A stretch of 64,000 bases of DNA from Pseudomonas sp. Seg1 (lineage in GTDB: Bacteria; Pseudomonadota; Gammaproteobacteria; Pseudomonadales; Pseudomonadaceae): NCBI RefSeq assembly GCF_018326005.1, contig NZ_AP021903.1, forward strand, positions 5,818,501-5,882,500, given 5' to 3'. A model generated the notes under the pieces. The model saw only the letters and a list, made by a program, of their open reading frames with translations. It made no database searches and was not told where the DNA came from. A program made the translations under genes and the position numbers. Of this stretch, positions 61,357 through 63,154 are shown in pieces; the stretch's first letter is position 1; each line of letters starts with the position of its first letter.

Positions 61357-61385
61357 ATTCTATGCAAACTATTCAGTAGGTGCAA
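61357..61385 (-). promoter_or_regulatory. Possible second, distal tRNA promoter
   Basis: Minus strand TTGCAC (61380-61385), 17 nt, TAGAAT (61357-61362), overlapping the end of the SPOR gene, followed by GC-rich sequence. The -10 and spacing are good but the -35 is poor. Confidence 0.4.
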
Positions 61386-61806
61386 CCCCCTCGCACAGCA
61401 TTATTTTATGTTTTAACTCATTGAATTCGTTGGAAAGGTTTTGCAATTGAGGATCACCCAGCAATCGCTGGCTTTCAGGAGCAACACGCAGCCAAAATCC
61501 GGATGCAGGAATGCCGCTAGGGAGAGGTTGAGCTTTGATATCCATCTCAGACAAGCGCCGACTCAGCGCCACAACCAGCTCCTGACGAACAAATCCCCCC
61601 ACATAAAGACACTGCTCCTCAGACCGTTGCAACTCCGACCTCCCACGAGAAGCAGCTGCCGTCTCGCTAAGCAGACGTATATCTTGCTGCGAACCCTTAT
61701 ACAAACTGAGAGGAGTTACGTCCTTTGCTCGCAAAGGTGCTTCCTGCTGATGCCAGACGTAGTAAAAAACATTGAGAACAACCAGCAACAGGAACAACCA
61801 ACGCAT
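61369..61806 (-). CDS. Small membrane-anchored SPOR-like protein
   Basis: 145 aa from the ATG at 61806 (MRWLFLLLVVLNVFYYVWHQ). One N-terminal membrane anchor, then a short linker, then a domain (about 60-140: CLYVGGFVRQELVVALSRRL…GFWLRVAPES) with the beta-alpha-beta pattern of SPOR domains, which bind denuded peptidoglycan at division sites. It matches by position the PA4278-type gene between coaX and the tRNAs. The nine codons upstream (MACPYLEVC) are the remnant of the CoaX C-terminus and not part of this protein. Confidence 0.78.
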   Translation of the reverse strand: MRWLFLLLVVLNVFYYVWHQQEAPLRAKDVTPLSLYKGSQQDIRLLSETAAASRGRSELQRSEEQCLYVGGFVRQELVVALSRRLSEMDIKAQPLPSGIPASGFWLRVAPESQRLLGDPQLQNLSNEFNELKHKIMLCEGVAPTE

Positions 61807-61807
61807 A

Positions 61808-62211
61808 CATACCTCTAGATAAGGACACGCCACGGCGAAAGCTCGAACACCAGGTTAGGCACAATCCTAACTTCTGGCACGACATCAGCTACCACCCAGC
61901 ATTGACATCGCACGACAGAGCCAAAAAGCCCGTAATCTTCATAACCGCTCTGACATCAGTTATTTCATACGAAGACATTTCACAACCAAGCGATGCACAA
62001 AGCTCCCGCCCAAGCATTTAAATCGGCTCATCACTATCACGGCGGTACAAATACTATCCAACCGACACTTGCTCGATAACACTCTATTCTGCCCCGCAGG
62101 CCCACACGCAAGGCCTCCTCGGAGCCCTGCTCTGAAACCAAAGTAGCAGGGGGCGATATTCAATACTCGCAGCTCTATAAAGCTGTTGTCGCAATCGTAC
62201 TCACCTATCAT
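61808..62211 (-). pseudogene. coaX: Degraded coaX (type III pantothenate kinase)
   Basis: The region between birA and the SPOR gene is the usual place of coaX. From the ATG at 62211, overlapping the end of birA, the sequence reads MIGEYDCDNSFIELRVL, close to the CoaX start (MILELDCGNSFIKWRVL as I recall it). A stop comes at 61960. Near the end, in other frames, DVVPEVRIVPNLVF and then AFAVACPYLE match the CoaX C-terminus. About 400 bp remain instead of about 750, with frameshifts, so the phosphate-binding and catalytic core is lost. CoaX makes 4'-phosphopantothenate, the first step to coenzyme A; this relic cannot. Confidence 0.8.
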
Positions 62212-63154
62212 CACGCAACCTCAAGCTGAGTTCCCCACCACTAAAAACCTTTTCTACGCCATTCACCATCAATCGCAGTGCACCCTGATTATCAATTCCG
62301 AGTACGACTCCATCTACCTGGCTGACGCCAGCAATCAACGACACCGATCGATCCTGCCACAAATGATTTTCTTCCCACTCTGCTTGGAGTACCGAAAAAC
62401 CATCTGCCTGCTGACGCCGTATATAAGCTTGCAGTTGCTCACTCAACTCAGTTGCCAGAACGTTACGATCACAGGTTTCCCCAGACTCCAACCGGATGGA
62501 TGTCCATTGCTGGTCGACCTCATCGGCAATCTGCATGTTCACGTTAATGCCTATGCCCAATACCACATGACACACATCTGCCGGATCCCCAACAAGCTCC
62601 AACAGAATTCCGGCAATTTTCTTATTGCCAACAAGAACATCGTTCGGCCACTTCAAACCCGCATCAGGTACTCCCAACTTTCGCAGAGTTTGCATAACGG
62701 CCAGCCCAACAACCAGACTCAAGCCCTCTAGCTGGCGCATCCCACCGTCAATGCGCAGCACAAGACTGTAATAAAGGTTTTCGGCAAACGGACTAACCCA
62801 CTTGCGCCCTCTTCGTCCGCGCCCAGATAACTGTCGCTCGGCCAGTACCAAAAATGGCGCCGTTCTCCCCTGACCGATAGCGCGTAGCGCCTCAGCGTTC
62901 GTGGAGTCTATAGAATTGAAGGTCGTGATCGGCCAGCCCGTCTTCATCCCACCTATTTTTAAAGAATCGAGCAGCATCAACGGCGCAGACAACTGATAGC
63001 CGCGCCCGCGAACTTTGTGGATAGATAGCCCAAGCTCAGCCTCAAGATGCTGAAGCTGCTTCCATACGGCACTTCGACTAATTCCCAAGGCAGCGCCCAG
63101 GTCCTGGCCAGAATGGAATCGCCCGTCCTTCAGTAGATTCAACAGCGTCAACAT
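62201..63154 (-). CDS. birA: Biotin-protein ligase and biotin operon repressor
   Basis: 317 aa, full length. N-terminal winged helix (MLTLLNLLKDGRFHSGQDLG…ISRSAVWKQLQ) makes it the bifunctional repressor-ligase type. The catalytic domain has the biotinyl-AMP loop GRGRRGRKW (about residues 112-120) and the KWPNDV motif; a C-terminal SH3-like domain ends the protein. It activates biotin and joins it to acetyl-CoA carboxylase. The stop overlaps the start of the coaX relic. Confidence 0.96.
   Translation of the reverse strand: MLTLLNLLKDGRFHSGQDLGAALGISRSAVWKQLQHLEAELGLSIHKVRGRGYQLSAPLMLLDSLKIGGMKTGWPITTFNSIDSTNAEALRAIGQGRTAPFLVLAERQLSGRGRRGRKWVSPFAENLYYSLVLRIDGGMRQLEGLSLVVGLAVMQTLRKLGVPDAGLKWPNDVLVGNKKIAGILLELVGDPADVCHVVLGIGINVNMQIADEVDQQWTSIRLESGETCDRNVLATELSEQLQAYIRRQQADGFSVLQAEWEENHLWQDRSVSLIAGVSQVDGVVLGIDNQGALRLMVNGVEKVFSGGELSLRLRDDR

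What the first reader, a model, noticed from the sequence alone, without database searches (positions are those of the whole stretch)
61808..62211. coaX is reduced to a frameshifted relic between birA and the SPOR gene
Seen: a CoaX-like start (MIGEYDCDNSFIELRVL) overlapping birA, a stop at 61960, and CoaX-like C-terminal pieces in other frames (DVVPEVRIVPNLVF, AFAVACPYLE), in only about 400 bp. Known: pseudomonads normally rely on type III CoaX for an essential step, at just this locus. Inference: this lineage must carry another pantothenate kinase, perhaps an acquired CoaA or an unrelated enzyme, and the old gene has been decaying since. A large internal deletion makes a sequencing error an unlikely cause.
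Basis: partly seen in the sequence, partly recalled or inferred. Interest (0 to 1): 0.8.

Follow-up and report, generated by a model that had tools for sequence, protein, structure and literature searches.

The report
Essential vitamin-B5 kinase swapped in Pseudomonas
This Pseudomonas has lost its usual enzyme for the first step of coenzyme A synthesis, leaving only a broken remnant of the gene, and carries an unrelated enzyme of the kind found in E. coli instead; the same swap is seen in several other Pseudomonas lineages.

Summary
A decayed coaX lies on the minus strand at about 62214-61816, still overlapping birA (blastn to a relative's coaX 1.6e-13). About 327 bp of catalytic core are deleted. 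The single-contig genome has no CoaX match but one intact type I pantothenate kinase, CoaA, about 352 kb away (389 bits, cut-off 235), with dN/dS 0.04-0.11.

79 of 80 named relatives keep coaX. The exception, strain TH43, has a different relic and is the only one of 13 tested with CoaA. Of 398 Pseudomonas genomes 376 can be scored: CoaX only 344, both 5, CoaA only 26, neither 1; 22 have no birA match, so the locus is taken as unassembled. The 'neither' genome has a mosaic, probably chimeric locus.

coaX loss needs 4-6 changes on a BirA tree. CoaA probably arrived more than once, but a formal test does not prove it (p 0.16). So this is one of several within-genus replacements of an essential enzyme, with dual-enzyme genomes still extant. 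Both enzyme classes are known; no listed paper described the swap in Pseudomonas. Activity is inferred.

The parts
61816..62214 (-). coaX relic (type III pantothenate kinase pseudogene), about 399 bp left of about 753
   Evidence: alignment, blastn/tblastn, shuffles
62158..62214 (-). relic block 1: coaX nt 1-57, start still overlapping the birA end
   Evidence: 73.7% to L002
61893..61967 (-). relic block 2: coaX nt 258-334
   Evidence: 75.3% to L003, E 5.2e-7
61821..61902 (-). relic block 3: coaX nt 662-745 (C-terminal end)
   Evidence: 79.8% to L002, E 1.6e-13
61893..61902 (-). deletion junction (about nt 335-661 lost)
   Evidence: blocks; sequences printed
61960..62214 (-). 84-aa ORF that begins at the old coaX start; no family match, read as a by-product of decay
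62201..63154 (-). birA, intact 317 aa
   Evidence: NF008848, 484 bits

Best explanation
coaX was made redundant by a type I pantothenate kinase (CoaA) at another locus (between a TetR-type gene and a TOBE-type gene, beside glnA and ssu-type genes). It then lost its catalytic core by a deletion and is decaying. Shown: the relic, no other CoaX match, an intact CoaA under purifying selection, the complementary distribution across the genus, and genomes with both. Inferred: that CoaA is the working pantothenate kinase, that possession of both came before coaX loss, and that CoaA came from outside the genus.
For: Relic homology and deletion. No PF03309 match in the one-contig genome (control rang in 7 of 14). 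CoaA: TIGR00554 equivalog 389.7 bits against 235, alignable over residues 16-316 with solved pantothenate kinases, P-loop GSVAVGKS kept, dN/dS 0.04-0.11 over 6 pairs of 4 genomes. 1 of 13 named relatives has CoaA, and it is the one without coaX. Of 376 scorable genomes: 344 CoaX only, 5 both, 26 CoaA only, 1 neither. At the CoaA site 8 of 9 CoaA-less relatives have TetR and TOBE genes only 305-387 bp apart (TOBE included) with no coaA, and 12 of 12 lineage-A carriers examined have coaA there. coaX loss needs 6 changes, at least 4 on starred branches (quick tree).
Against: No activity was measured. The type II (PF03630) search found nothing, but its control was silent. The independent-pairs test has only 3-4 pairs and is not significant. 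CoaA absence in most of the 344 rests on a search that scored at most 5 candidates per genome, and 12 of the 398 have weak matches (19-53 bits) that I counted as absent without identifying them. The coaX state of the nearest CoaA relatives G175 and G243 is unknown. One genome, G229, has a coaX relic and no CoaA match. That CoaA arrived more than once is not proven.
Confidence: 0.92

Rival explanations
1. An unrelated or type II kinase, not CoaA, replaced CoaX, and CoaA has another role (for example pantetheine salvage only).
For: The type II search control was silent. G229 has a coaX relic and no CoaA match. Kinase types can coexist, as CoaA and CoaX do in B. subtilis (PMC11487621, passages).
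Against: CoaA is over its equivalog cut-off. CoaA is present in 26 of 27 scorable CoaX-less genomes. The G229 locus is a mosaic: an 889-bp stretch identical to TH43 against 84-88% at the CoaA-site flanks, with birA out of frame exactly at its edge, which suggests a chimeric assembly.
Confidence: 0.05
2. Not a pseudogene: a shortened or new small gene (84 aa) that uses the old coaX start.
For: The start and the overlap with birA are kept.
Against: The frame changes relative to CoaX, no family match, core deleted, and TH43 has a different, shorter remnant.
Confidence: 0.02
3. A sub-question: CoaA spread between Pseudomonas lineages by homologous recombination, rather than by an old dual state resolved by loss.
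For: Carriers are scattered, yet 12 of 12 lineage-A carriers examined use the same site; host and CoaA labels are patchy.
Against: Flanks of carriers do not group together and only 2 changes are needed (19 rows); the relics of TH43 and the window differ.
Confidence: 0.3

Closest known systems
Type I pantothenate kinase CoaA (TIGR00554; solved examples 1esm, 2ges, 3tqc)
   Same: The window genome's replacement enzyme matches nearly full length over the cut-off with the P-loop kept.
   Different: It sits in Pseudomonas, which a published distribution lists under type III (PMC4103530, passages).
Type III pantothenate kinase CoaX (PF03309, NF009859)
   Same: The relic is homologous and at the usual place after birA.
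   Different: Core deleted, frame broken; no profile match.
Non-orthologous gene displacement; compare M. tuberculosis, where CoaX is reported non-functional beside a type I enzyme (PMC7770189, passages)
   Same: Two unrelated kinases, one dispensable.
   Different: Here coaX is physically deleted, apparently several times within one genus, with CoaX-only, dual and CoaA-only species side by side.

Membership tests
Type I pantothenate kinase (CoaA) | score over the TIGR00554 equivalog cut-off | tested here: met
   389.7 bits against 235
Type I pantothenate kinase (CoaA) | P-loop and conserved active-site stretches (their roles recalled) | tested here: met
   GSVAVGKS, VTTD, HRKGFPESY and NLVENILPTR aligned to solved chains
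Type I pantothenate kinase (CoaA) | phosphorylates pantothenate, inhibited by CoA | not testable with these tools
   no assay
Type III pantothenate kinase (CoaX), for the relic | sequence homology and position | tested here: met
   blastn 1.6e-13; birA overlap kept
Type III pantothenate kinase (CoaX), for the relic | intact catalytic core (DFGTAVTAD, GGFICPG; roles recalled) in one frame | tested here: not met
   about nt 335-661 absent; no profile match of the 84-aa ORF
Type II pantothenate kinase (CoaW), as a substitute | PF03630 match in the genome | tested here: inconclusive
   no match, but the control rang nowhere

The most novel reading that the evidence does not exclude
Pseudomonas lineages repeatedly passed through a dual CoaA+CoaX state and resolved it in opposite directions, so the genus holds a natural series (CoaX only, both, CoaA only with graded coaX remnants) of an essential enzyme being exchanged for an unrelated one. 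The choice may reflect selection for CoA feedback control or pantetheine salvage, which type I enzymes offer and type III lack.
Probability: 0.42. Interest if true: 0.68.

Novelty: new member of a known kind. Interest (0 to 1): 0.5.

Why it matters
Pantothenate kinase is discussed as a drug target, and Pseudomonas has been filed as a type III genus (PMC4103530, passages). 35 of 398 sampled species carry type I (33 over the cut-off plus 2 shorter ones), and 26 of them have no CoaX at a locus that is assembled. That predicts different feedback control and pantetheine salvage within one genus, and perhaps different antimetabolite sensitivity (recalled), and gives related strains in which the exchange of an essential enzyme can be tested. 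It also warns that draft assemblies can miss the birA-coaX stretch, so absence calls need a check.

Tried and rejected
Third kinase in 'neither' genomes: of 19 genomes with neither family over its cut-off, 18 also have no birA match, so the stretch beside the rRNA operon is probably just missing. G229 was the exception. I fetched 400 kb of it: its CoaA site is empty, and its relic is the TH43 one inside patches of perfect identity. I read this as a chimeric assembly or recent recombination; it stays in the table as the one 'neither'.

Proof of two CoaA arrivals: my first test (p 2.2e-5) was badly set up. Nine unnamed proteins that nest inside lineage A had been labelled outsiders, which alone could cause the rejection. 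With them counted as lineage A, or left out (then together with the long row P0031), one Pseudomonas clade is not rejected (p 0.164 and 0.165), although the free trees and starred branches separate the two groups.

Sequencing error: rejected, since three blocks at 74-80% identity and a 327-bp deletion are seen in a one-contig genome. Relocated coaX: no match. SPOR label: not confirmed. The SPOR query was out of frame and served only to locate the gene. Independent pairs: too few. Global alignments are over-fragmented and print window positions 6 too high; coordinates here come. The coaA extraction failed for 2 of 5 loci (L194, L195); tblastn covered them.

Rows dropped: L119 (same strain as L020) and L112 (same genome as L120) left out of the BirA tree; L021 stands there as CoaX although its BirA is identical to that of dual genome G087, and its CoaA was not tested. 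Four CoaA carriers without a birA match (G175, G243, G050, G285) and 18 other genomes left out of the 376.

Literature: five searches (of these, 34 and 62 listed only 30 of 39 and 20 of 67 papers) showed no title on a CoaA/CoaX exchange in Pseudomonas; the library holds open-licence papers only. Three papers were read as passages. PMC3133259 was not held; its title was seen in a reference list.

Full report
Observation. The window holds birA (62201-63154, minus) followed by about 400 bp where relatives carry coaX. The stretch 62214 to about 61816 (minus) aligns with coaX in three blocks: nt 1-57, nt 258-334 and nt 662-745. Local score 79 against at most 29 in 500 mononucleotide shuffles. About nt 335-661 are gone. 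The junction carries an ATGCTGGGT stretch, perfect upstream in one relative and downstream in another but in no single one at both ends, so a slippage-type deletion is only suggested. The 84-aa ORF beginning at the old start matches no family.

Relatives. A birA-based search gave 80 named Pseudomonas loci (80 kept of 345). By ORF calling and a CoaX start motif 79 of 80 have coaX of 249-251 aa after birA. The exception is Pseudomonas sp. TH43 (L020), with a shorter, different remnant.

Substitute. The genome (one contig, 6,625,535 bp) has no PF03309 match and one type I pantothenate kinase, coding stretch C1:6233067-6234017, minus, about 352 kb from the relic. It aligns over residues 16-316 with solved pantothenate kinases. 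Four genomes (G000, G175, G024 = TH43, G243) give dN/dS 0.04-0.11 in 6 pairs. It lies between a TetR-type gene and a TOBE-type gene, beside glnA and ssu-type genes (gene names recalled from the sequence, not profiled). Nine CoaA-less relatives were examined there: eight have the TetR and TOBE genes 305-387 bp apart (TOBE included) and no coaA; P. frederiksbergensis AS1 has 1,099 bp with another open reading frame. 12 of 12 lineage-A carriers examined have coaA at this site.

Distribution. A search for the window's CoaA in 13 named genomes found it in TH43 only; TIGR00554 was over its cut-off in none of the other 12. In 398 Pseudomonas genomes TIGR00554 is over the cut-off in 33; two more (G056, G262) have a shorter protein at 223 bits, and 12 have weak matches of 19-53 bits, counted as absent but not identified (at most 5 candidates scored per genome). 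Of the 35, CoaX is over its cut-off in 5. CoaX is over the cut-off in 349 of 398; the list of the 19 with neither was read off the listed matches. birA was sought to test whether the locus is assembled: found in 26 of the 30 genomes given (one, G042, is a dual-enzyme genome, so 25 plus the window make 26 scorable CoaA-only genomes) and in 1 of 19. Scorable: 344 CoaX only, 5 both, 26 CoaA only, 1 neither; 22 not scorable.

The one 'neither' genome, G229, carries the TH43-type relic. Over 5.9 kb it shows patches identical to TH43, the longest 889 bp, whereas the CoaA-site flanks of the two are 84-88% alike; birA loses its frame exactly at the edge of that patch. Four other relatives compared with TH43 reach at most 230 bp of identity. 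Open-frame coverage of the six G229 stretches checked is like the window's, so overall quality is not the reason. I take the locus as a chimera or recent recombination, not as proof of a third enzyme; this is inference.

History. Pseudomonas CoaA falls into two groups in the trees (lineage A with the window, and a P. gingeri-type group with allies). Members of the second group are 44-49% identical to the window's CoaA; lineage A's best outside match listed is 54%, the second group's best named one is a Burkholderiaceae bacterium at 71-72%. This favours separate arrivals, but once unnamed proteins are placed correctly one clade is not rejected (AU p 0.16; the p 2e-5 came from mislabelled rows). 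On a BirA protein tree of 110 rows (quick, SH-aLRT only) CoaX loss needs 6 changes, at least 4 on starred branches; the window sits in a starred set of 5 whose other 4 members keep coaX, and G407 (CoaA only) is the starred sister of dual genome G319. The flanks of the lineage-A site need only 2 changes, with non-carriers nested among carriers (19 rows), compatible with an old insertion and later losses. The independent-pairs test had 3-4 pairs and is not significant.

Known background (passages read). Most gammaproteobacteria have CoaA or CoaX, few bacteria both; in B. subtilis either single mutant grows but the double could not be made, and only CoaA supported pantetheine use (PMC11487621). 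Pseudomonas is listed under type III; type I is sensitive to CoA, types II and III are resistant (PMC4103530). M. tuberculosis CoaX is reported non-functional beside a type I enzyme (PMC7770189). No listed paper is titled on an exchange in Pseudomonas.

Verdict. The enlargement is that this is one of several such exchanges in the genus, with dual-enzyme genomes as plausible intermediates. The kind of event is known; this set of cases seems undescribed in the library searched.

Noticed in passing
L192 and L193 (G056, G262), CoaA open frame of 263 aa: Two 4.5-4.6 Mb Pseudomonas carry a compact CoaA that seems to lack the usual N-terminal part (44% to other Pseudomonas CoaA) and have no CoaX match, so a shortened type I enzyme may be their kinase and perhaps a further acquisition.
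   Followed up: partly
L158, L176 (G229): birA-coaX locus is a mosaic with 889 bp identical to TH43 and birA out of frame at its edge; probable assembly chimera or recent recombination.
   Followed up: partly
G318 and G371: Best CoaX matches are unusually weak (7.8e-26 and 7.6e-22), two matches in each genome, and no CoaA over the cut-off; possibly broken or divergent coaX.
   Followed up: no
18 genomes, for example G048, G060, G084: Neither birA nor coaX is found in drafts that rate up to 100% complete, so absence of coaX in drafts can be false.
   Followed up: partly
L155, between the TetR and TOBE genes: P. frederiksbergensis AS1 has another open reading frame at the site where other lineages carry coaA; a possible insertion hot spot.
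   Followed up: no
L194 (G168): Dual-enzyme genome whose CoaA is only 53% identical to the window's and not at the glnA/TetR site in the stretch seen; perhaps a separate acquisition.
   Followed up: no
window 61369-61808: The gene called SPOR has no Pfam match at E<=1, although an ORF is conserved in that place across relatives.
   Followed up: no
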